From: Aldrovandia affinis
Lineage: Eukaryota; Chordata; Actinopteri; Notacanthiformes; Halosauridae
Reading direction: 5' to 3'
Length of the DNA stretch: 64,000 nt
Assembly: GCA_029706075.1 (NCBI GenBank)
Contig: JAINUG010000026.1
Coordinates: 7,086,674 to 7,150,673, forward strand
In this document: piece by piece, positions 12,685 through 62,952 of the stretch
Numbering within the stretch: position 1 is the stretch's first letter
Layout of the letters: each line of letters opens with the position of its first letter
The notes under the pieces: generated by a model
What the model saw: the letters and a program-made list of their open reading frames with translations, nothing else
Told to the model about the DNA's origin: nothing
Databases searched by the model: none
Position numbers and translations under genes: made by a program

Positions 12685-13437
12685 AAACACCAACATAAAG
12701 TGTCTTAATAGGGTGTTGGGTAACCAGAAGCCACCAAGACAGTTTTAATGGACCTTAGCATAGATTCTACAAGTGTCTGGAACTCTTGGAGGGATGAAAT
12801 GCCATTCTTACATGAGAAATTCCATCACTTGGAATTGGTAATTTTGCTGATGGTGGTGTAAAAAGCTGTCTCAGGCGCTGCTCCAGAATCTCCCATAAGT
12901 TTTCATTTGGGTTGAGATCTGGTGACTGAGAAGGCCATGTTATATGGTTTTCATCATTTTCAAGGGTGTTTGGTTGATCTGGATGGATAGTACCTTAGAT
13001 GATGGGCAGCCGACTCATGTAAATGGGTGCTCTAACCTCTGGTTCCGACAGATCATACTAGCTCATGTATGGCTCCTCGGAACTGCTAGTGTACGGCAGT
13101 GGCCACACCCTGGCTCCTAACCTCGGCTGGTTAGCAAAACTACATGAGTGAACCTGTATGGTGGATTCCTGCAGGTGAGGGACGTCTCCCCTCAGTACAT
13201 GAAGACTGCAACGGCGGAATAGGCGGGCTTGGTTGGTAGACTGAATCACCCGGTTATGAGGGCGAAGCAGCAGCAGCCGTTCATTCGACTGTGGCATTCC
13301 TTCGGAGCATCTATAGGAGTGCCGATAACCCGCTGCCTTGCGGTGTGTGGCATTGGTTTTCCAAAGGCTAGCAGAGTAAACTGTACCCAAACCTCAGTAG
13401 TTCTGGCGTCACACTGAGTATTCAGCCACTTGAAAAC

Positions 13438-14761
13438 ATGATGAGTACAACCTACAGCTCCAGGGTTAAAGCCCCTGCATTGAATCTTCCCACTCAGGAG
13501 ACTATTGACACTCAGTCCCATGACGACAGCGTCCGAAACCCTTCTGGGAGGGCCTCATCTGATAAAAGTAGTCGCCTGAAGGGACTTGCTAGACCAAGTA
13601 AAACCATCTTCTTTAGTCAGCTAAACTGTCATAGCCTTTCTTCTCTGTCTTCCAGAGAAGAACTTAACAAACACCTTTGTGACTACGATACATCCGTTGC
13701 CTGTATTCAAGAACACCGTCAAATGCATGGACAAGACGACCCTGACATCCTTGTATCTAGTATAGGGTCTTCAACCATTTTTACTTCCTCCGCAACACGG
13801 AACCTACATGGTTCTGCCATTGGGGGTGTAGCGATTACTGTCAAAACATCTTTGCTCCCTCTGCTCATTTCCATCTCTAAGATGAACAGTAGAATAATGC
13901 TAGCAGTCTTTAAAGGCAATCCAAAGACATACGTTGTCTCCTGCTATTCTCCAACTAACGTCAGTGACGAATCATCTATTACCAATTTTTTTGAGCATCT
14001 CAATGAAACTATCGCCTCCATTCCCCAGCATGCCCTCCTTCTTATTGGTGGTGACTTCAACGCCCATGTAGCAAGGAAGTTTTCCTACCACCCTGCTACT
14101 AACCGAAATGGTCAGTTTCTCACTGAATTTGTTAACCAAAATAACCTTCTTATCACCAATACAATGTTTCAGAAATCGTCAAAGAAACTCTGGACTCATT
14201 GTTCACCTAATAAGTTCCTATCACAGATCGACTTCATTCTTTGTCGTAAACAATGGAGAAATAGCATCCAAGATTCCCAAGCATATTCCACCTCTGATCC
14301 GATCGGTTCCGACCACCGCATTGTCTGTGCTAAGGTTAGGCTCAGTCTTCATTCTGCAAAACCATCTGCTCTCTTGAAGCTAAATTGGGCCGCCATGACT
14401 ACGGATCAAAATCTTGCATCTGCAATTGAGGACCATATTTCAGATGAGTGGTTCTCTATGGACACTGATGTCCAGTCCTATGGCAACTTTGTTGATACAT
14501 GTGTGAAAATTGGGAAGTCAATCCTTCCGTCTCAAGCTAAACTGCCTCCCAACCTTGTTTGCACTAGCCCAGTTAACTTAGCTAGGACCAATGTGCTAGC
14601 TTCCACAATCGATGATCTCCCTGCTACTCAGTCCAACCTCAGAGCTGTGTATGACGAGCAAGAAGACATTAGAGTCAACAACACAATTAGTACTTTTGAC
14701 AAACGTGAATTCACCAGTGACTTGCATTGTGCCTGGAAATTAGTTAAACAGCTCTCTGGTA
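13438..14761 (+). pseudogene. LINE endonuclease (APE-type) region
   Basis: The frame opens at 13438 and encodes an apurinic-type endonuclease that nicks target DNA for reverse transcription. Visible motifs by residue: QLNCHSL at 61-67, IQEHR at 90-94 with the metal-binding Glu, GGVAITVK at 129-136, CYSPTN at 169-174, GGDFNAH at 204-210, SQIDFILC at 262-269 and SDHRI at 291-295. These are the expected catalytic blocks in the expected order. The frame is open without a stop through about residue 441, then enters foreign sequence (14762-14880). The remaining 55 codons of the 496-codon ORF come from that insertion and a shifted frame, not from the LINE protein. Confidence 0.85.
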
Positions 14762-14880
14762 GATATATATATACATACATACATACATATATGCCATTTA
14801 GCAGACGCTTTTATCCAAAGCGACTTACAGTAGTGAATGCATACATTTTTGTAAGCGGTCCAACACTGTATTCATCCAAG
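14762..14880 (-). mobile_element. Antisense L2/SINE 3'-tail fragment inside the LINE
   Basis: A (CATA)n-like tract (about 14771-14790) is followed by CATTTAGCAGACGCTTTTAT and CAAAGCGACTTACA. This is the complement of the UnaL2-type tail seen elsewhere here. The stem-loop is antisense to the host LINE. The LINE reading (EDRMASWKSHF) resumes at about 14881. No clear target duplication was found. Confidence 0.75.
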
Positions 14881-16500
14881 GTGAAGATCGAATGGCCTCA
14901 TGGAAGTCTCATTTTGAAAACCTTCTGAATTCTGATAATAATACCAATGCTTAAGGTACAATTGACCCAATCTTTAAAACCAACTCTAACATTCCCACCG
15001 GCAAATTTTCTCAAGCCGAGGTCAATGCGGCTATCGCGCAAATGAAACTTGGCAAGGCCCCTGGTATGGACAGCATCCCTATCGAAGTTTGGAGGCTTCC
15101 CAAACTGAAGAAGTGTCTTACACACTTCTGTAATACAACCTTGGAAGGAAATTGCCCGCCTGAATGGGGCATCTCCGGCATTGTGCCAGTTCCGAAAAAA
15201 GGTGACCTGACCATCCCAGACAACTATCGGGGAATCAGTCTAACTCAAACAGCTGCAAAAATCTACAACCGTCTTTTGCTGAATCGTATTCGTCCTGAGT
15301 TGGAAAAGGTCCTTCACCCCAACCAAAATGGTTTTCGGCCTCTGAGATCTACTTCTTCACAAATCCTTGCTCTCAGATGAATAATTGAGGAAATTCGAAA
15401 TCATCAGAAAGAAGCTGCAATAATCTTCATTGACTTCCGCAAAGCATTCGATTCTATCAACAGTGTTCAGACCCACAATGTTTAAAATTTTGAATGCTTA
15501 CGGAATCCCGGAGGAGATTGTAAATGCCATCAAAATTATGTATGAGGATACAAGTGCAGTCGTTCTCACTCCGGAAGGCGAAACTGATTCATTTTTCATC
15601 AACACCGGCATTCTCCAGGGTGATCCACTTGCCCCCTATCAATTCATCATAGTTTTGGACTACGCCCTGCGGATAGCAATAAACGACACTGACGGTCTAA
15701 CTCTGACCTGCCGTAGAAGTAGTAGATATCCTGCTCAACACCTCTCTGACCTAGATTACGCTGATGACATTAGTCTGCTTGCTGACACCCTTTGAGATGC
15801 AGAATCTCTCCTCCACAAAGTTGAAACTTGCTGCAAGTCCATTGGTCTCTCTCTTAATGCAAAGAAAACTAAGTACATTCACCTCAATCCCTCCACCACT
15901 GGTGACATCATAGCGCTTGATAGCAGTAAGATCGACAAAGTTGATGACTTCAAATACCTGGGCTCCTACACAAACTCGACCCACGATGTTGAATGTAGGA
16001 AGGCTCAAGCTTGGTCTGCTCTCCACTCATTGAGGAATGTTTGGCAATCTTCAATCCGTAAAAGCTCCAAAATTAACATCTTTAAAACATCTGTGGAGTC
16101 CATTCTCCTCTATGGGTGTGAGTCTTGGGCCCTCACCAGCAAGATCACTAAGTCCATCGATGGTACCTACACGGATGTTGCGTGCTGTCCAGAATGTTTC
16201 CTGGCAGGACCACCTTCCAAACTTTGCCCTGTACGGTGCCCTCCCCTCCATCTCAAGTGTCATCAGACAGCGTCGTCTTCGGCTAGCTAGCCGGCTAGCC
16301 GCTGGCTCATTAGCACAATGAGCCAGCCAGTCGTGTCCTCCTTTGGACGCCAGACTCTCCCCGTCGTAGAGGTCGACCTAACATCACCCTTAAATCGTCC
16401 ATTGAACTGGAGACAGGACTGTGCGGATCGTCTCTTCGCAATGCAATGCTTGACAGGGAATGCTGGATGAAGCTCATCAGGTCATCACAGATGTGAATGA
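14881..16500 (+). pseudogene. LINE reverse transcriptase region, broken
   Basis: Continuation of the same LINE. LGKAPGMDSIPIEVW (15048-15092) is the first RT block, followed by VPVPKKGDLTIPDNYRGISL (about 15187-15246), NGFRPLRST, IFIDFRKAFDS (about 15423-15455), GILQGDPLAPYQF (about 15607-15645) and the catalytic YADD at 15757-15768. Beyond it lie KTKYIHLNPS, FKYLGSY and LLYGCESWALT (about 16108-16140), then the C-terminal RMLRAVQNVSW block. Stops occur at 15378 and 15793, with a frameshift near 15460 and another after 16150. Confidence 0.85.
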
Positions 16501-30947: not shown

Positions 30948-31377
30948 TGTGGCATCCCAAGGGGTAGCTCGGGGAAATGACTGCCTGCCCATTTTAAATT
31001 GTGTGGTTGACAAGAGCCAGAGAAACTACAGCTCCCAGCAACCTCCCCACCTGGCCACCAGCTGAAGCAAATGAAGCAATTGGGACTGCTGGCAGCTGAA
31101 ACCAGTATTGGACTGAATAAAAGGACTAATTGTGCCGCATTGAAGGGGAGAGTGGAGAGAGCAGTTGCAGGGTTTGGAGGGTTTGGAGGGTTTGGAGGGT
31201 TTGGAGGGTTTGGAGGGTTTGGAGTTTGGAGAAAGATTCTTTAAATTGTAAAATTATTTAGAAAATGGTTATTCAAATTATCATTTTGTTTGTATTCCTG
31301 CCTCCTCTGCATTTAATCGCTTGCCTACGCCCTCTGAAAAGATCCTTGTGTATCACCCGACACCCAGTGACACTACA
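30948..31377 (+). mobile_element. Solo LTR, 430 bp, with 4-bp target duplication
   Basis: Begins TGTGGCATCCC and ends GTGACACTACA, flanked by ATAC at 30944-30947 and 31378-31381. The ends match the LTRs at 41122-41757 and the solo LTR at 46337-46631, especially the U5-like TTGCCTACGCCCTCTGAA segment (31320-31338). It contains a 9-bp tandem repeat (GGTTTGGAG, about six copies, 31170-31228). Confidence 0.85.
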
Positions 31378-36250: not shown

Positions 36251-36274
36251 CTAATCAAATTGATGTTACACTTT

Positions 36275-36332
36275 GTTGTACGTCGCTCTGGATAAGAGCG
36301 TCTGCCAAATGCCAGTAATGTAATGTAATGTT
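36275..36332 (+). repeat. L2-type 3' tail fragment
   Basis: GTCGCTCTGGATAAGAGCGT followed by CTGCCAAATGCC and (TAATG)n. It contains the perfect stem CGCTCT-GGATA-AGAGCG. Confidence 0.8.
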
Positions 36333-36689: not shown

Positions 36690-37846
36690 GTAACCGTTTC
36701 ATTGCGTGCTAGAATCTGTTAGTAACCCGGTGTTAGATTTCCAGTTTAGTGGCTGTGCTCTGTACCCGTTTCACTGGGTTTAGTGTTAGTTAATATAGTT
36801 AACATAGTTATTATAATTATAATTATTAAGCTGTTTGGTGTTCCTGTGTCTTAGTGGTAATCGCTGCTTAGAAGTTTTTCTGTCAGAAGTTGATTAGCAG
36901 TTAGCTTAGAATCAGTTTAATTGTTTCAGGTGTAAACGTCCATCTCTGTAGTCGGGCGTTCCCTGAGTAGTGGGTGGTGCCTGTTAGCCAGTTAATTGTT
37001 GTCTATTGTTATCAGCTGGCATTCACCACTTAGTGCCTAGCACCACTCAGCTTTTTAAGTAACCATAGTTGTGGAAAGCGGCAGCTTTTCGCGGCAGCCT
37101 CCCCGTACGAAGACTTGGCGGATAAAGACAAAGGAGTCTACCTATAGGAGTCAAGACTCGGCGGACAAAGACAAAGGAGTCTACCTATAGGAGTCAAGAC
37201 TCGGCGGATAAAGACAAAGGGGTCTACCTATAGGAGTCCACCGAGGGAGGCCAGCTAGGGAGTTTTGTATCTCCCTGTTCTTCCTCTGCATCTAACACTA
37301 AATGCTAAACACTAAATGCTACCTCCCTATCCCAGTCCATGTCTCCTCTTATAGATTTCCTAGAAGGAGAGACTCTACTCACACCCGAAACTTCTCCAAT
37401 CTCATCCACCCTCCTAGATCTCCTGGTGTCGACGTGGTGGTAGCAGGCGGACTATGGAACTGCCAGTCCACTGTCCGGAAGGTTGATTTAATCTTGTCCC
37501 AGGTCTCCCTGCAGTTCCTGGCGCTCACGGAGACATGGATCACTCCGCAGAACATGCCCACCCCTGCTGCTCTCTCCCCTGCCTACACCTTCTCACACAC
37601 TCCACGACCCACAGGTAGAGGTGGAGGGACAGGTATACTGATCTCTCCCCTGTGGAGATTTGGTATTGTTGGATTGATGGAGCGCAATTGGTCAGGACCG
37701 TGGAATCACTTGCGATCTTCCGCAAGAGACTCAAAGAGATCTCTTGCGCAAACTATGATTGTTCCTACCATGTATTTATGCACATCTTGTAAGTCGCTCT
37801 GGATAAGAGCGTCTGCTAAATGCTTAAAATGTAAATGTAAAAATGA
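36690..37846 (+). mobile_element. L2-clade LINE, internally deleted, with 5' leader
   Basis: The leader (about 36690-37300) holds three 43-bp tandem repeats. Endonuclease coding follows from about 37470 (VDLILSQVSLQFLALTETWI, and the GRGGGTGILIS block ending near 37655). It then jumps at about 37685 straight to the C-terminal end (NWSGPWNHLRSSARDSK) and the 3' tail. That tail (37785-37846) has the stem-loop CGCTCT-GGATA-AGAGCG and (ATGTAA)n. The entire RT is missing, so the copy is non-autonomous. The 5' boundary is approximate. Confidence 0.75.
37111..37239 (+). repeat. Three 43-bp tandem repeats in a LINE leader
   Basis: Units start at 37111, 37154 and 37197 (AGACTYGGCGGAYAAAGACA, then AAGGRGTCTACCTATAGGAG). 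They differ by very few bases. In LINEs such 5' monomers can act as promoter units; that role here is inference. Confidence 0.9.
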
Positions 37847-40640: not shown

Positions 40641-41121
40641 CTCCCTAACCAGTTGACTTCCTTTGCATGATTTGTTTATGGGTGCAAAGTACCCCCACCG
40701 CCCCAACCCTCAGTTTGGCCTCAGTTTGAATCAGCGCAACACTTTTTTGAGGCGTTTTCTTTTTATTCCAAGCCTTACGATCTGCAATGAAATGGCCTGG
40801 ATCAAGACAGTAAAAACAAACGTGTTTGTCACTGACATGATTGGAAATTGTCTTACAAATCATAAGGAAGGCCTCCTGCTTTCCTGAATTTAGGAAAACT
40901 CTTTCACATTTTTTTCAACAGGTAACAAATTTATCTTTACGCACAAACGGGGAAAACACCGTTTTTTGCGCTAGTACTGTTAATTAAGATACACAACCAT
41001 TTTCTCTGGCAGACAACCCTTAAAATCTTTCAACAAAATTAATTTGTGTAGTTGGTCAATAGTTGTTGTCTTAGTGGCTATACACCATTTATCAAAAAGA
41101 GCTCTGTTTTCATGAACATAC

Positions 41122-41757
41122 TGTGGCAGCCGGATGGGCTGCACTAGGAAATGGCTGCCTGGCCTACAACACATGGCAGCCATTTTTCACTACATTTCCC
41201 AGCATGCCACAGTAACACCTGAACCAAGTCAGGTAATGGAGATAGAGAACAGCTGAAAGCCATTTCAAAGGCCTATTTAAAGGGCGGTTGCCCATTGTTC
41301 TAGGAGAGGAGTCGGAACGAGTTGGGAAAGGAGTTGCTGTGCGAAATTGTTGAGTAAATACCTGTGAAGTCATTGACCAGCCAGGATTTACAAGGAGTGG
41401 TGAGAGAGAGTTTTTTTGAGAGTTTTTGGAGAGAATTTTTGAGAGTATTTTTGGAGAGAGTTTTTGAAAGAGTGTTGGGGAATTGTTTTTGCTTTGGGAT
41501 TGGATTGATTGGATTTTGATTACGGACTGGACAACGAACCTTGGACCTGGATTGCGGATTTGGAACGGACAACAACAAAGAGACAAGCCTTGTGGACTTT
41601 GTGTTTGTATTCCCCCAAAGACCCCACCCTGCGTTTTGTGTTGTTTGTTTCAATAAATCATAACTTCTGCTGATATTACTGCCTCCTCAGTGTTTTTACA
41701 CGTGCCTACGCCCTCTGAACGGTCAGTGAGTGTCGCCCAACCCATGGGGACGCCACA
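41122..41757 (+). repeat. 5' LTR
   Basis: Starts TGTGGCAGCCGGATGG and ends GGGGACGCCACA, giving a TGTGGC...GCCACA inverted terminus. A TATA-like TATTTAAA lies at 41274-41281 and AATAAA at 41652-41657, in the spacing expected for an LTR promoter and polyadenylation signal. A run of AGAGTTTTT-type repeats (41405-41475) lies between them. A 140-codon minus-strand frame here is not a gene. Confidence 0.92.
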
Positions 41758-41759
41758 TA

Positions 41760-41776
41760 TGGTGGAGAATGCGGGC
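41760..41776 (+). promoter_or_regulatory. Candidate tRNA primer-binding site
   Basis: TGGTGGAGAATGCGGGC begins two bases after the 5' LTR. It starts with TGG, as needed to pair with a tRNA CCA end. I cannot name the tRNA from memory. Confidence 0.6.
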
Positions 41777-41849
41777 AGAGGGCAGCACAGATAGGCAAGA
41801 GGAGGTAGTGCAGCAGGGGTTTTGTTTGGTTTGTGCAACAGACTCCACG

Positions 41850-43568
41850 ATGGGAGAGATGCAGAGACTAAAGAGACGGGCAGCCATGGTGGAGGACCGA
41901 TGGCGTGTCACCCTCCGGGAGGTCCAAGAGCTGAAGCAGAGTGCCCAGCTTGAGCTGTGCAAGGCAAAATTGGAGGTGAGCACCGCAGAGGATCGCCACC
42001 TGATGGCCATGATGAAGTTGAGAGAAGAGCTCCACATGGACTCCCTGGAAGTGATGAGAATCATGGCTGGGGAGATGGAAAAGGAGAGGGCATCCCTTGG
42101 CGATGAGATGAGGCGGGTAGAGTCCCACAACCTGGCGCTCAAAGAACAGGTGAGCTACCTAACCCAGATGTGGGAGAATGAGCAGCGACATTGTCGGGAC
42201 ATGCAGGAGTCCCGGGACCAGGCCGCAGATGAGTGTGCCAGGGCCTTGGGGGATGCCCAGACCAGGCTCGCCCAGAAGGAGGCAGAGCTAACGGAGAACC
42301 ATGCGTCCGAGGCGGAGCAACTCCGGTGCCGAGTGGAGCAGGAGAGCAGGGATACGCACCAGGTCGAGGCCAACGCCCTGCGGGAGCAGCTGGCCCAGCT
42401 GGAGAAGAGCGTGGAGCAGGAAAAAGCCCAGAACCAGGAGCTACAGACCGAGCAGGAGAAGCTCCTGGCCCAGAGAGATGACGTCAGCTCCCAGCTGCAG
42501 GAGGTGAACCGCGCCAACAGCCGGCTCCTGGAGCAGCTGACTGAACGGGCCAGGAGAAAGGACAAACTCCAGCAGGCGCTGGAGGAGACCAGGAAGACGG
42601 CGGACAAGCGCCAGGGCAGGCTGGACGAGCTGGCCATCGGCGTGGCGCAGGAAAAGTCGCGCTACGAGAAGGAGCTGCGTGGCCTGCACGAGGACAAGAA
42701 CCGCACCGAGGAGGAGATCCGGTCACAGCTCCGTGACGAGAAGGCCCGCACTCGGGAGCTGGAGAGCCTACAGCAGACGGTGGAGGTCAGACTCAAAGAG
42801 GCGAACGAGACGGCGGAGAAGAGTGCGCTGGAGCACCAGGAGCAGGTCCAGAAGCTGCAGATGGAGCAGACCGCACAGCTTCAGGGGAAGATGGCGGAGA
42901 TGGAAGCCCAGCAGCGGGCCACAGAAAAGGCAGGTCGGGAAGTACTGAAGGTCCAAGCCGAGACTGTGCTGGACCTACAAGCCCGACTGAAAGGGGTGAG
43001 TGAGGAGCTGGACTGTGTACAGTGTGTTCCTGTCACCCAAGACGCTGGCACGCAGGTGGAGGTCCCGCAGCCAGCGGAGCTGGGAGGACATGATGACCAG
43101 ACAGTGGAGTGGGGACAATGGTCCTCAGTCCCACTCAGCCTGCCGGACCTTCCAGGGAGCCAGGAGGAGCTATGGGGGGACCATAGTATGGAAGAAGGCC
43201 TCATAATTATGGCCGAGGCCGGTTTGAACACCCAACCATCTCCTGAAAAGGTGAGTCCATCCCCCTCACTAAAATTGGAAAAATTTAAAAGAAAAGTGAA
43301 GATTAGAGGTTCTCCACTGAAGAGGAAAGGAAAACGGAACAGGCAGATGGGTAGACGGAGTGACCATGGGAAGCATGGGTGGAGCAGAGATGCCAGAAGG
43401 ACAAGGAAAGAAAAAGGGAGAATTAACCGTGTGGTGAAGAGAATGTTTTCCCCAGTTGCCCTACCTGACCCCCTGAAAGGAAAAGGGAGGTGGAGGAAAA
43501 GGCTGAAGCCTGGACACTGGATTCCGGAATGGCGTAACGGATACCGGAGGAGCCATGGGGGCTGGTGA
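41850..43568 (+). CDS. Long coiled-coil protein carried by the LTR element
   Basis: Intact 572-codon frame. I chose ATG 41850 (A at -3, G at +4). In-frame ATGs upstream lie inside the LTR (41730) and in the primer-binding site (41769). Residues about 1-385 are a nearly uninterrupted charged heptad-type coiled coil (blocks such as EQLAQLEKSVEQEKAQNQEL and QLTERARRKDKLQQALEETR). Residues about 386-470 form a less ordered acidic linker. Residues about 475-572 are strongly basic (FKRKVKIRGSPLKRKGKRNR and RKEKGRINRVVKRMF) and end in an aromatic GHWIPEWRNGYRRSHGGW. No zinc knuckle, aspartic protease or polymerase motif is present. The DNA is GC-rich, unlike its AT-rich surroundings. Layout suggests multimerisation plus nucleic-acid binding, like a Gag in outline, or a captured host myosin/golgin-like coiled coil. 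I do not recognise the family. Confidence 0.8.
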   Translation: MGEMQRLKRRAAMVEDRWRVTLREVQELKQSAQLELCKAKLEVSTAEDRHLMAMMKLREELHMDSLEVMRIMAGEMEKERASLGDEMRRVESHNLALKEQVSYLTQMWENEQRHCRDMQESRDQAADECARALGDAQTRLAQKEAELTENHASEAEQLRCRVEQESRDTHQVEANALREQLAQLEKSVEQEKAQNQELQTEQEKLLAQRDDVSSQLQEVNRANSRLLEQLTERARRKDKLQQALEETRKTADKRQGRLDELAIGVAQEKSRYEKELRGLHEDKNRTEEEIRSQLRDEKARTRELESLQQTVEVRLKEANETAEKSALEHQEQVQKLQMEQTAQLQGKMAEMEAQQRATEKAGREVLKVQAETVLDLQARLKGVSEELDCVQCVPVTQDAGTQVEVPQPAELGGHDDQTVEWGQWSSVPLSLPDLPGSQEELWGDHSMEEGLIIMAEAGLNTQPSPEKVSPSPSLKLEKFKRKVKIRGSPLKRKGKRNRQMGRRSDHGKHGWSRDARRTRKEKGRINRVVKRMFSPVALPDPLKGKGRWRKRLKPGHWIPEWRNGYRRSHGGW

Positions 43569-43823
43569 AGACCAGAACCGGAGCGGTGACCGCTCCGTCC
43601 GTGGAGCCCAGAGCCTGTACCCACTGGTGGCCATTTTGGGGCAGAAAAAGGTGAGCCACTTGCGTCCCTCATTAATGTCTGCCAGACATTTTTTCAGGCA
43701 ACCAGAGACTGGGGATTCTGGACGTTTGACCCAGGGGGGACACTTCCTGAGTGGACCTGGAGAGGGGGACCCTCCTGGTGGCCGCTGGACATAGGCCGCT
43801 CGGCCCTCCCCGAGGTCAGAGCT

Positions 43824-43836
43824 GAGGAGGAGGGTG
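43824..43836 (+). promoter_or_regulatory. Polypurine tract
   Basis: GAGGAGGAGGGTG lies directly before the 3' LTR, in the position of the plus-strand primer. Confidence 0.65.
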
Positions 43837-44472
43837 TGTGGCAGCCGGATGGGCTGCACTAGGAAATGGCTGCCTGGCCTACAACACATGGCAGCCATTT
43901 TTCACTACATTTCCCAGCATGCCACAGTAACACCTGAACCAAGTCAGGTAATGGAGATAGAGAACAGCTGAAAGCCATTTCAAAGGCCTATTTAAAGGGC
44001 GGTTGCCCATTGTTCTAGGAGAGGAGTCGGAACGAGTTGGGAAAGGAGTTGCTGTGCGAAATTGTTGAGTAAATACCTGTGAAGTCATTGACCAGCCAGG
44101 ATTTACAAGGAGTGGTGAGAGAGAGTTTTTTTGAGAGTTTTTGGAGAGAATTTTTGAGAGTATTTTTGGAGAGAGTTTTTGAAAGAGTGTTGGGGAATTG
44201 TTTTTGCTTTGGGATTGGATTGATTGGATTTTGATTACGGACTGGACAACGAACCTTGGACCTGGATTGCGGATTTGGAACGGACAACAACAAAGAGACA
44301 AGCCTTGTGGACTTTGTGTTTGTATTCCCCCAAAGACCCCACCCTGCGTTTTGTGTTGTTTGTTTCAATAAATCATAACTTCTGCTGATATTACTGCCTC
44401 CTCAGTGTTTTTACACGTGCCTACGCCCTCTGAACGGTCAGTGAGTGTCGCCCAACCCATGGGGACGCCACA
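43837..44472 (+). repeat. 3' LTR
   Basis: Same 636 bases as the 5' LTR by direct reading of the blocks and of the frames they contain; no difference was noticed. Confidence 0.92.
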
Positions 44473-44792
44473 ATACTCTACAAATGTTTGAGTGGCAGTT
44501 TCCCCATGGCCTCTAAACCTTTGGCAATATGCTTCAGGAACTAATGCATAAGAATGTAGCACAGTAGTCTTGCCAGACTTTGTTCAATGGGCAAGTCAGA
44601 AACGACTTTATCCACAAGTTTATATTGCAACAATATAGACCACATTTCCTTGGGCCAACGCAAAGTAGCCGATATTTTCTCAAAAGCAGTGAAGTAAGAA
44701 TCAGCTTCTATGAACGGGGGCACTAATTTCATATGCCTACTCACATCAAACGCAGAAGAAGTGGTGCGCTTACGATCAGGCGTACTGGTTGT

Positions 44793-46336: not shown

Positions 46337-46631
46337 TGTGGCAGCCAAAGCGGCTGCACAAGGAAATGGCTGCCTGGCCTCCAACACATGGGAGCCCGAG
46401 AACACTACATTTCCCAGCAGGCCACAGTCACACCTGAGCCGAGTCAAGGCATCAGTCGCTATCTGTTGAAGTTGCGCCCTGTTTGCGCGCGATGGGAACA
46501 GAATAGTTTGTCAAGAAGATTATTAGTTAAATAAATTGTTTTGTTTTGAATACTGCCTCCTTCGTGGTTTTCAACTTGCCTACACCCTCTGCAAGGTCCG
46601 TGAGTATCGCCCAACCCCCAGGGACACCACA
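46337..46631 (+). mobile_element. Solo LTR, 295 bp, same family group as 41122-44472
   Basis: Begins TGTGGCAGCCAAAGCGGCTG and ends GGGACACCACA, flanked by ACAT at 46333-46336 and 46632-46635. It shares AATGGCTGCCTGGCCT, TACATTTCCCAGCA and the U5-like TTGCCTACACCCTCTGCAAG with the 636-bp LTRs but lacks their middle. Confidence 0.88.
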
Positions 46632-46930: not shown

Positions 46931-47068
46931 TTAAAAAGCTTACTGGACCCTAACACCCTACTGTGGTAGTATTAGTTAGTTATGAGGTCACTGGGATTAA
47001 TTTATTCTGTTATTATGTTATTGTTTTTACATGTCACATTGTCCAGCTGGACCAGCTGATCATAGGAA

Positions 47069-47301
47069 TAGGATCAGATGAGGTGAAATTGGTTGCCTAT
47101 GGATACAACAGGAGTGTTCTTCCTGGGATGCTTACCTGTAACCCTTGGGTCAAGAAGTAGTTTCAGAAAGCTGGAGGATCAGATGGACAATGTCCATAGG
47201 ATCAGATGAGGTGAAATTGGTTGCCTATGGATACGACAGGAGTGCTCTTCCTGGGATGCTTACCTGTAACCCTTGGGTCAGGAAGTAGTTTCAGAAAGCT
47301 G
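47069..47301 (+). repeat. Tandem duplication, 128-bp period
   Basis: 47069-47173 and 47197-47301 are 105-bp copies with about three mismatches, separated by 23 bases. The 65-codon frame across the first copy ends at a stop before the copy ends and is not a convincing gene. Confidence 0.9.
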
Positions 47302-55381: not shown

Positions 55382-55603
55382 TGGCAGTGTAGTGTAATGG
55401 TTAGGGAGCTGGGTTTGTAACTCAGAGGTTGCAGGTTAAATTCCCAGGTGGGACACTGCTGTTGTACCCTTGAGCAAGGTACTTAACCTGAATTGCTTCA
55501 GTAAAATATCCAGCTGTATAAATGTATTGTATGTAGAGAAATGTAAACTGTGTAAGTCGCTCTGGATAAGAGCGTCTGCTAAATGCCTAAAATGTAAATG
55601 TAA
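55382..55603 (+). mobile_element. tRNA-headed SINE with UnaL2-type tail
   Basis: The head is TGGCAGTGTAGTGTAATGGT with B-box GGTTGCAGGTTAAATTCCC. The body has CCCTTGAGCAAGGTACTTAA. The 3' end is GTCGCTCTGGATAAGAGCGT, CTGCTAAATGCC and (ATGTAA)n. The tail equals that of the LINEs at 36690-37846 and 44793-45588, as expected if the LINE machinery mobilises it. Confidence 0.88.
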
Positions 55604-55614
55604 TGCAAAATGTA

Positions 55615-57405
55615 ATTGTCAATCAACAACATGAAGTGGCTATCTTTGCCTCTTACCTCTCCTCTGTTAAGTGTGCATTTTCGTCTTTGAAATGCAATCC
55701 TCTGCATCTAAGCCACGCAACCCAACTCTTCTCTACATTTTCCTCTCTCCCTCCTCCTCCCCCGCCCCAGTCCTCTCTAATTGCGGATGACTTTACATCC
55801 TTCTTTCGCAAGAAAGTCAATGACATTCACAACTCCTTCTCCCCAGCCCCTCCCCCACCTACCCCTCCCTCACCTATCTCGCAACCCAAACCACACACCT
55901 CCCTGTCCTCCTTCTCCCCCCTCTCTGACCCTGACATCTTATTCACTCCCACCGTCCTACCACCTTTGATCCCATTCCCTCCCCCGTCTTCCAGTCCATC
56001 TCTATGGACATCCTCCCCTTTGTCTCCAATATAATCATCTCTCTTTCCTCTGGTACTGTCCCCTCTGCCCTCAAAAGGGCCCATGTCATCCCCCTTACCA
56101 AGAAACCCTCTCTGAATCCTGCTGACATCTCTAATTATTGACCTGTCTCTCTCCTCTCATTCCTATTCAAGACTGTAGAATGGGCTGTATATAATCAACT
56201 GTCTCTTGATCTCCTACAGAATGACCTGCTTGATCCCAACCAATCTCCTCTGCTCGTGGTCACTGATTCTCTCCACTCTGTGAAGACTCAATCACTCAGC
56301 TCCGTCCTCCTCCTGCTCAACCTATCGGCTGAATTTGACACTGTTGACCACCAGATCCTGCTCTCGCCGAGATGGGAATCTCAGGATCTGCACTAGCATG
56401 GTTTGAATCATACATGGCTGAACGGTCCTACCAGTTGGCCTGGAGAGGATCCCTCTCCTCTCCCCACACCCTCTCAACCGGTGTCCCACAGGGCTCGGTG
56501 CTAGGCCCCCTCCTATTCTCCCTGTATACCAAATCACTTGGTTCTGTTATCTCTGCTGATGCCTCAATCACCATGGAAGGCTCCGTAGTGTCTCCATCCC
56601 TGTCTGCCAGGAGCCTTGAAGTGACTCTGGATGACGAGCTTATCGGGGCACATCGCAGCGATGACCCGGACCTGCCGATCCTCCCTCCCTCTGTTCCTCA
56701 CCCAAAAGGTCACACAACGCCTGGTCCAGGCTCTGGTAATCTCACATCTGGACTACTGCAATTGCTTGCTGGCAGGCATACCGGCCTGTGCCATCAAGCC
56801 ACTGCAACTAGTGCAGAATGCCGCCGCATACCTAGTTTTCACCTAATTATAGACTCTATTTATTTAAATTTGCCCTCCCCACACGGAATTCGCCCACCCA
56901 CATTCTGGAGTCTCCCTTACATGCTTCTCATTGAATTCGTGCCGGCTCACCCTCCCCCTCCCCCTGGAGCGGACAGCCAAACGCCGCCCCCCATCGGGGC
57001 TCCCCACCAGGGCTGGTATGGTACAGTCGGGTTTCAAACCGGGACTGTGATAGGCAGCTCACACTTGTAAAGGACAAGCTAATAAGGGTGTGTTAGACCG
57101 CTACGCTATCGGAGGCCCCCCTACCACTGATTCTATACATTAATTAACTGCCATCACCACTGTTTACATATTTTAAAATGTCATGATAAAAAAATCTAAA
57201 AAATAAACGAAACAAAACGTAACTTTTCTTTCCCTGTGCTATAGGTACGATATGCAGCTGTCAACAATGATGTCTGCTGCAGTGTTACTACACTGATCTC
57301 TTGCACCAACTTTGATTAATCGTACCATATTTAAATGCACTTTTTGCTCTGAATAAGAGCATCTGCTAAATTCTGTAAATGGAAATGGAAATGGAAACTA
57401 AATGT
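55615..57405 (+). mobile_element. L2-clade LINE, RT region, decayed and SINE-interrupted
   Basis: 55795-55850 encodes the linker before the RT (DDFTSFFRKKVNDIHNSF). 56040-56120 encodes the first RT blocks (ALKRAHVIPLTKKPSLNPAD) and 56477-56530 [18 protein letters not shown]. The catalytic YADD segment is deleted: the frame jumps from KSLGSVI to a later region. C-terminal [20 protein letters not shown] follows at about 56744. A SINE splits the 3' region. The tail (57340-57405) has a mutated stem-loop GCTCTGAATAAGAGC and (TGGAAA)n in place of (TGTAAA)n. Many stops make it inactive. Confidence 0.8.
56850..57117 (-). mobile_element. tRNA-derived SINE, type II, copy E
   Basis: The reverse complement starts GGGGGCCTCCGATAGCGTAG, with a B-box-like GTCCCGGTTTGAAACCCGAC and the body CCCTGGTGGGGAGCCCCGAT and TTTGGCTGTCCGCTCC. 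It sits in the 3' region of the LINE, which resumes at CTACCACTGATTC. The inner end is approximate. Confidence 0.8.
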
Positions 57406-61724: not shown

Positions 61725-62952
61725 CAATGGGGGAAATAAGTATTAAACACATCAACATTTTTCCCAGTAAATGTATTTCCAATGAGGCCATTCAAGTGAA
61801 ATTTTGGTATTAACTCAAGAAATCCAGACAAAAAATCTAAACATTAAAGTCCATATGTAAATAAAGTTATGTGTAATAAAGTGGAATGACATAGGAAAAA
61901 AGTATTGAACACACTAACTGAAATTAATTCAATACTTAGTGGAGAAGCCTTTCATACAGAAAGCTTCAAGGCGCTTTCTGTATGAAGTAACTAATCGCCC
62001 GCAGTATTCAGGTGTGATTTTGGCCCATTCCTCTACACAGATTGTCTTTAAATCTTGAAGATTGCAGGGGGCCCTCTTGTGAATCTGGATCTTCAGATGC
62101 TTCCACAAATGTTCAATTGGGTTTAAGTCAGGTGATTGACTGGGCCATTCCAACAAGTTGATTTTCTTTCTCTGAAACAAATTGCAAGTTTCCTTTGCCG
62201 TATGCTTTGGATCGTTGTCCTGCTGGAAGGTCCACCCACATCTCATCCTCAGCATCCTGGTGGATGGCAGCAGGTTCATCTCAAGAATCTCTCTGTACAT
62301 GGCTCCATTCATTGTTCCTTCAATTATATGAAGTCTGCCAGTACCACGAGAGGAGAAACAGCCCCACATCATGATACTTTCACCTCCAAACTTCACTGTT
62401 GGTAAAGTGTTATTCGGGTGATGTGCAGTGCTATTGATGTTGCTTCCACTTACGGATAATGCCCCCAATGGTGCTTACTGGAAGATTCAGAAGTTGTGAA
62501 ATACGTCTGTAGCCAATTCCATTTTCATGTTTTGCAACAATCTGGTTGCGAAGGTCTTGAGAGGGCTCTTCGCTTTTACCCATCATTAGATGTTTCTTGT
62601 GTGGCACCTTGGTAACAAAAAAAACCTTTTATAGCCCATCAATATATTCTAACCCAGCTGACATTAATTGGCACAGATTGGAGGTAGAGTTGCCTCCTAA
62701 TTAGTTATGGTTTTCAGCTGGTTCCTTGCCTTTCCTTGCTGTGGTGTACAGCTTTTTCTTAGTGTGTTCAATACTTTATTCCTGTTTCATTCCCCTTTAT
62801 TACACATAACTTTATTTACATATGGACTTTAATGTTTAGATTAAATACCAAGTTAATACCAAAGTCTGGTGCAAATTTCACTTGAATAGGCTCATTGGAA
62901 ATGCATTTACTGGACAAAATGTTGATGTGTTCAATACTTATTTCCCCCATTG
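61725..62952 (-). mobile_element. Tc1-like element, complete ends, internally deleted transposase
   Basis: Inverted repeats of about 190 bp (61725-61914 and 62760-62952) start CAATGGGGGAAATAAGTATT and are flanked by TA at 61723-61724 and 62953-62954. The minus strand opens at ATG 62586 with the first helix-turn-helix (MMGKSEEPSQDLRNQIVAKH). A stop then follows at the junction near 62465, where the second DNA-binding domain and first catalytic block are deleted. From 62468 to 61929 a 179-codon frame keeps [25 protein letters not shown] and [15 protein letters not shown], with DD34E spacing between the second Asp and the Glu. It is non-autonomous but young-looking. Confidence 0.9.

What the first reader, a model, noticed from the sequence alone, without database searches (positions are those of the whole stretch)
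41122..44472. Recently active non-autonomous LTR retrotransposon whose only cargo is a coiled-coil gene
Seen: two 636-bp LTRs that read as identical, ATAC target duplication, primer-site and purine-tract candidates, and one intact 572-codon ORF in place of gag-pol. Known: identical LTRs mean recent insertion, and elements without pol are mobilised in trans. Inference: this is a distinct family in which a protein-coding cargo has stayed intact while pol is absent, which implies selection on the cargo or very recent capture.
Basis: partly seen in the sequence, partly recalled or inferred. Interest (0 to 1): 0.88.

Follow-up and report, generated by a model that had tools for sequence, protein, structure and literature searches.

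The report
Pol-less LTR element encoding coiled-coil protein
This looks like a recently inserted jumping element that cannot copy itself: two identical ends flank one gene for a long coiled-coil protein with a strongly basic tail, much like a known zebrafish element that carries only a structural gene.

Summary
Two 636-bp LTRs (41122-41757, 43837-44472) are identical at 636 of 636 positions. They are flanked by ATAC/ATAC, with a primer-site candidate at 41760, a short purine tract at 43824-43836 and one 572-codon ORF (41850-43568). With the element and one ATAC removed, an 82-codon frame reads open across the junction in a decayed, weakly gag-like sequence. No credible Pfam domain was found in the ORF or in ten other frames of the element.

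The ORF is predicted as about 380 residues of helix, then mostly disorder, with a tail of net charge +28 in 92 residues. Two apparent solo LTRs in the window share the LTR ends, so the element belongs to a wider group.

Best reading: a non-autonomous LTR retrotransposon copied in trans, whose protein probably serves its own RNA particle and whose middle may be captured coding DNA. The closest published case I found is zebrafish BHIKHARI-1, which has a single coiled-coil Gag ORF and no pol, but a capsid domain.

The parts
41118..41121 (.). target site duplication, left copy (ATAC)
41122..41757 (+). 5' LTR, 636 bp, TGTGGC...GCCACA
41274..41281 (+). TATA-like box (TATTTAAA) in the 5' LTR
   Evidence: motif match only
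41652..41657 (+). poly(A) signal AATAAA in the 5' LTR
   Evidence: motif match only
41760..41776 (+). primer-binding-site candidate TGGTGGAGAATGCGGGC; first 9 bases would pair with an alanine tRNA 3' end (recalled, not tested)
41850..43568 (+). single long ORF, 572 aa: coiled coil, acidic linker, basic tail
41853..42989 (+). predicted coiled-coil part (residues 2-380; helices 2-164 and 170-380; no proline before residue 394)
42480..42854 (+). GC3-rich core of the coiled coil (codons 211-335, GC3 0.90 against 0.54-0.57 in codons 401-572): possible captured coding DNA
43290..43565 (+). basic tail (residues 481-572, net charge +28), candidate RNA-binding region
43248..43256 (+). best splice-donor-like match (AAG/GTGAGT, cut before 43251); others in the ORF at 41976, 42150, 42996, all in phase 0
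43698..43862 (+). possible alternative last exon: after acceptor-like TTTTTTCAG ending at 43697, 54 codons open in frame with the four donors, stop TAG inside the 3' LTR; no RNA evidence
43824..43836 (+). short polypurine-tract candidate GAGGAGGAGGGTG
43837..44472 (+). 3' LTR, identical to the 5' LTR
44473..44476 (.). target site duplication, right copy (ATAC)
46337..46631 (+). apparent solo LTR of a related family, 295 bp, duplication ACAT/ACAT (related sequence, not part of the element)
30948..31377 (+). apparent solo LTR of a related family, 430 bp, duplication ATAC/ATAC (related sequence, not part of the element)

Best explanation
A non-autonomous LTR retrotransposon inserted recently into a decayed older retroelement. 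Its RNA starts and ends in the LTRs, is primed at the site beside the 5' LTR, and is copied and integrated by the enzymes of a related autonomous element (inferred). The single ORF makes a long self-associating coiled-coil protein with a basic tail. It most likely works in cis as a stand-in for Gag, binding and gathering the element's own RNA before a partner's particle or enzymes act on it (inferred). The ORF looks composite: an element-like basic tail joined to a coiled coil whose GC3-rich middle may come from captured coding DNA (weakly supported).
For: Shown: LTRs identical at 636 of 636 positions; 4-bp duplication ATAC; an 82-codon frame reads open across the empty site with one ATAC, at most 48 with both copies kept; primer-site and purine-tract candidates; no credible Pfam domain in the ORF or its pieces or in ten other frames of the element; coiled-coil periodicity in residues 1-400 (0 of 1000 shuffles); helices 2-164 and 170-380; tail net charge +28; related LTRs with conserved ends, variable middles and 4-bp duplications, as expected of a group sharing an integration machinery. 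The ORF begins 92 bases after the 5' LTR, the usual place of gag (recalled). Precedent: BHIKHARI-1 has one ORF, no pol in any reference-genome copy, N-terminal coiled coil, C-terminal glycine-rich patch and recent insertions (PMC10996621, section 5 read). Composite ORF: highest GC3 over 120 codons 0.908, above all 2000 synonymous shuffles, whose maximum is 0.875; NCG codons 10 of 20 in the core against 11 of 79 elsewhere, Fisher p 0.0012, with segments chosen after looking.
Against: No capsid domain, zinc knuckle or other Gag hallmark was found, and a 380-residue coiled coil is not typical of Gag (recalled). The fold model is single-sequence (mean pLDDT 66.3, pTM 0.25) and could miss a domain. 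Residues 1-130 alone show no significant periodicity (68 and 80 of 1000 shuffles reach it). The CpG peak is not significant (1667 of 2000 synonymous and 1779 of 2000 codon-order shuffles reach it). No partner element, RNA or second copy was seen.
Confidence: 0.5

Rival explanations
1. Captured passenger: the ORF is all or most of a host coiled-coil gene picked up by recombination during reverse transcription. It does nothing for the element, which is copied purely through its LTR, primer-site and packaging signals.
For: GC3 0.90 in the core against 0.54-0.57 in codons 401-572, and overall GC 0.41 in the window outside the element; predicted 380-residue coiled coil with no Gag domain found. Capture of extra ORFs by LTR elements is published (PMC5408684, title, abstract start and passages).
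Against: No recognisable host family: Pfam and PDB matches are weak and generic to coiled coils. The ORF's last part and the leader have element-like composition. The basic tail fits an RNA-binding role (inferred).
Confidence: 0.3
2. Diverged Gag of a known fish retroelement lineage (such as the lokiretrovirus-related BHIKHARI group), with pol lost by deletion; the capsid domain is present but unrecognised.
For: Same plan as BHIKHARI-1: one ORF, coiled coil first, possible nucleic-acid-binding end, pol absent, young.
Against: Residues 1-393 contain no proline and residues 2-380 are predicted as two long helices; residues 381-572 have no regular structure apart from helix 512-532, with net charge -10 in 401-480 and +28 in 481-572. 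That leaves little room for a capsid fold, though the model is low confidence. No Pfam match.
Confidence: 0.17
3. Assembly or gene-conversion artefact: an old element with LTRs made identical.
For: Identity alone cannot tell recent insertion from conversion or collapsed assembly.
Against: Clean duplication, frame open across the empty site and open ORF all agree with recent insertion.
Confidence: 0.03

Closest known systems
Zebrafish BHIKHARI-1 (Bik-1), PMC10996621
   Same: Two LTRs around a single long ORF (617 aa there, 572 here), no pol in the element, N-terminal coiled coil, C-terminal part suggested to bind nucleic acid, recent insertions with duplications, solo LTRs.
   Different: Bik-1 Gag has a predicted capsid domain and a glycine-rich end; here no capsid is found and the tail is Lys/Arg-rich. 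The coiled coil here looks longer (inference from a 617-aa protein that also holds a capsid). Sequence relationship was not tested (no BHIKHARI sequence on hand).
Plant TR-GAG elements (search listing only)
   Same: Non-autonomous LTR elements that keep only a gag-like ORF (recalled).
   Different: Plant elements with a recognisable gag domain (recalled); none found here.
LTR elements with captured extra ORFs in bdelloid rotifers (PMC5408684, passages)
   Same: LTR elements carrying non-standard ORFs, some with coiled coils; [quoted passage not shown]
   Different: Most extra ORFs described there accompany gag-pol (my reading of the passages); here one ORF of unrecognised kind stands alone.
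LINE-1 ORF1p (abstract start of PMC10202459; coiled coil recalled)
   Same: Works-like comparison: an oligomeric RNA-binding protein of a retroelement.
   Different: Non-LTR element; no homology tested or claimed.

Membership tests
LTR retrotransposon | Paired direct LTRs with TG...CA ends | tested here: met
   636 of 636 identical, TGTGGC...GCCACA
LTR retrotransposon | Short target duplication | tested here: met
   ATAC/ATAC; 82-codon frame open across the empty site
LTR retrotransposon | Primer site complementary to a tRNA 3' end | tested here: inconclusive
   Candidate at 41760; tRNA match only recalled; no tRNA gene in the window
LTR retrotransposon | Polypurine tract before the 3' LTR | tested here: inconclusive
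   12 of 13 purines at 43824-43836, 17 of last 22; short
Non-autonomous LTR retrotransposon | No reverse transcriptase, protease or integrase | tested here: met
   No Pfam enzyme domain in the ORF or its pieces or in ten other frames of the element; best chance match RNase_PH_C, E 0.1-0.19, below cut-off
Non-autonomous LTR retrotransposon | Autonomous partner sharing terminal sequences | not testable with these tools
   Genome search unanswered; only related LTRs seen
BHIKHARI-like Gag-only ERV | Single ORF with N-terminal coiled coil, pol absent | tested here: met
   residues 1-130 alone are not significantly periodic
BHIKHARI-like Gag-only ERV | Capsid domain in the ORF | tested here: not met
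   No Pfam match; single-sequence model, low confidence, shows long helices and disorder only
BHIKHARI-like Gag-only ERV | Sequence or tree relationship to lokiretroviruses | not testable with these tools
Ty3/gypsy or retrovirus lineage | Reverse transcriptase phylogeny | not testable with these tools
   No reverse transcriptase found in the element

The most novel reading that the evidence does not exclude
A fish-type LTR element that replaced its capsid protein with a captured coiled coil joined to its own basic tail, and that makes nested isoforms by splicing. Four strong donor-like sites lie in the ORF, all in the same phase, and join in frame to one acceptor-like site that gives a shared 54-residue tryptophan-rich end. 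It would be a capsid-free, pol-free element that still supplies its own RNA-gathering protein.
Probability: 0.1. Interest if true: 0.75.

Novelty: new variant of a known kind. Interest (0 to 1): 0.45.

Why it matters
Elements with one intact non-enzymatic gene test what an LTR element must supply for itself and what it can borrow. BHIKHARI-1 Gag is reported as essential for mesoderm development in zebrafish (PMC10996621, preprint, abstract passage). A second, structurally different coiled-coil ORF without a capsid would ask whether such genes arise repeatedly and whether the coiled coil, not the capsid, is what is kept.

Tried and rejected
Relatives elsewhere: the protein in IMG/VR matched one stretch by pattern but no relative. 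The primer-site pattern gave 4 stretches. Their best match to the element is the 18-base site itself (E 0.006), and the other matches in the first 30 rows shown have E 0.86 or more. The ORFs of the three that I listed look phage-like by eye (L001 not listed), so I treat them as chance. LTR-end patterns gave 0 in viral contigs and 0 in genome contigs.

Host-gene identity: Pfam and PDB at loose thresholds gave only weak matches, many of them coiled coils. The best for the core piece were Pfam OVT1 (E 0.0097, below cut-off) and PDB syntaxin-1A (E 0.031). Rejected as evidence of origin.

CpG island as proof of capture: rejected. The peak does not exceed shuffles; only GC3 and the NCG count do, the latter by a contingency test with segments chosen after looking.

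Structure-library search: not run, because the model is low confidence and coiled coils give meaningless matches.

Papers: all 10 searches used. Rows shown were 2 of 2, 30 of 42, 20 of 69, 20 of 135, 15 of 18, 10 of 10, 10 of 8,498, 10 of 48, 10 of 54 and 8 of 11. In the titles and abstract starts shown I saw no LTR element made only of a long coiled-coil ORF without capsid. Rows not shown, subscription papers and Repbase were not seen.

Full report
WHAT IS THERE. The element occupies 41122-44472. Its two LTRs are 636 bp and identical at all 636 positions, begin TGTGGC and end GCCACA, and are flanked by ATAC on each side. With zero differences the 95% upper bound on LTR difference is 0.0047 per site. 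At assumed rates of 1e-8 to 2e-9 per site per year (my assumption) that means at most about 0.23 to 1.17 million years. Gene conversion or assembly collapse could mimic this. When the element and one ATAC are removed, a minus-strand frame of 82 codons reads open across the junction; with both ATAC copies kept the longest such run is 48. A flank piece in that frame matches the Pfam SCAN model weakly over residues 22-63, which lie outside the LTR (E 0.0008, 19.6 bits, below the 27-bit cut-off); the pieces on the other flank match nothing. So the insertion probably struck a decayed gag-like gene of an older element.

ANATOMY. The LTR holds TATTTAAA at 41274 and AATAAA at 41652 (motif matches only). 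The primer-site candidate lies two bases after the 5' LTR. Its first nine bases would pair with the 3' end of an alanine tRNA; that is recalled, and no tRNA gene was found in the window. The ORF starts 92 bases after the LTR and runs 572 codons. An upstream in-frame ATG in the primer-site candidate could extend it. The longest open frame of the internal region (602 codons) is reached by 1 of 2000 Markov simulations. The purine tract is short.

THE PROTEIN. Residues 1-400 have 16% Glu, 11% Gln, 12% Leu and 3% Pro plus Gly, with no proline before residue 394. The hydrophobic period is 3.58 residues over residues 1-400, reached by 0 of 1000 shuffles. In pieces, 80, 4 and 5 of 1000 shuffles reach the observed power for residues 1-130, 131-270 and 271-400, and 322 of 1000 for 401-572 (68, 3, 6 and 222, where shuffles were scanned on a coarser grid). 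The single-sequence AlphaFold model gives helices 2-164, 170-380 and 512-532 and no other regular structure, with mean pLDDT 66.3 and pTM 0.25; residues 380-511 and 532-572 are almost all below pLDDT 50. Net charge is -17 in residues 1-400, -10 in 401-480 and +28 in 481-572; the only CxxC is at 389, there is no cysteine after residue 400, and no CCHC knuckle. Pfam gives nothing credible in the ORF or in ten other frames of the element, and PDB nothing at 0.01.

COMPOSITE ORF. GC3 is 0.74, 0.83, 0.90, 0.65, 0.57 and 0.54 in codons 1-120, 121-210, 211-335, 336-400, 401-480 and 481-572. The peak over 120 codons (0.908) exceeds all 2000 synonymous shuffles. The CpG peak does not exceed shuffles. 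NCG codons are 10 of 20 in codons 211-335 and 11 of 79 in the other five segments (Fisher p 0.0012); these segments were drawn after looking. CpG at codon junctions is below expectation in all six segments, 0.63-0.67 of it in codons 121-400 (not significant for 336-400) and 0.27-0.36 in the rest. This fits a middle acquired later than the ends, but constraint or base-composition differences could do the same.

SPLICE-LIKE SITES. Five RGGTGAGY sites lie on the sense strand of the 2079-base internal region and none on its antisense strand. The rest of the window has 5 in 121,298 strand-bases, which predicts 0.09. Markov models of order 1, 2 and 3 predict about 0.5, with 0 of 3000, 0 of 2000 and 1 of 2000 simulations reaching five. 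Of 3000 synonymous shuffles of the ORF, 3 reach the four seen in it. All four in the ORF are in phase 0; the fifth, at 43651, lies after it. Joined to the acceptor-like TTTTTTCAG ending at 43697, each of the four continues into the same 54 codons, stopping in the 3' LTR. The pattern was chosen after it was seen and no RNA was available, so this is a lead.

RELATIVES. Two apparent solo LTRs in the window, 46337-46631 (295 bp, ACAT/ACAT) and 30948-31377 (430 bp, ATAC/ATAC), share the LTR ends with this element (for the first, 84.5% over 110 bp and 81.5% over 81 bp; for the second, 80.4% over 46 bp; alignment and duplications). Their middles differ. Hence a wider LTR group is or was active here. 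No other primer-site match within 3 mismatches exists in the window. The host is probably a ray-finned fish (inference from four UnaL2 LINE tails, and a Tc1-like transposase remnant).

COMPARISON. BHIKHARI-1 of zebrafish is the nearest published case I found: one 617-aa ORF with coiled coil, capsid and glycine-rich end; 196 insertions, 25 with both LTRs, eight of those with a full-length ORF; none encodes pol; transposition is inferred to be complemented (PMC10996621, section 5 read in full and passages). Ours works like it on current evidence but fails the capsid feature, and sequence kinship could not be tested. PMC9341512 (passages) and PMC5408684 (passages) give background.

VERDICT. The class (young, non-autonomous LTR retrotransposon) is well supported.

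Noticed in passing
window 46337-46631: 295-bp apparent solo LTR with the same ends as the finding's LTR and an ACAT duplication.
   Followed up: yes
window 30948-31377: 430-bp apparent solo LTR of a further related family with ATAC duplication; holds a 9-bp tandem repeat at 31165-31224.
   Followed up: yes
window 41976, 42150, 42996, 43251, 43651 and 43697: Excess of strong splice-donor-like sites on the sense strand of the element and one acceptor-like site giving an in-frame 54-codon end.
   Followed up: partly
window 43735-43789: 28-bp imperfect tandem repeat, 1.9 copies, between the ORF and the 3' LTR.
   Followed up: no
window 41404-41473 and 44119-44188: Imperfect 12/25-bp GAGAGTTTTT tandem repeat inside each LTR, in the stretch where related LTRs differ.
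   Followed up: no
window 14788-14841, 36265-36318, 37777-37829, 55539-55592: Four UnaL2 LINE 3' elements; endonuclease-like frame at 13372-14925 and RT-like frames below cut-off at 15796-16287 and 56348-57067.
   Followed up: no
window 61932-62474: Transposase remnant matching Pfam DDE_3, E 4e-13, Tc1-like by inference.
   Followed up: no
window 37110-37238 and 47068-47301: A 43-bp tandem repeat (3 copies, 95% matches) and a 128-bp tandem repeat (1.8 copies, 97% matches).
   Followed up: no
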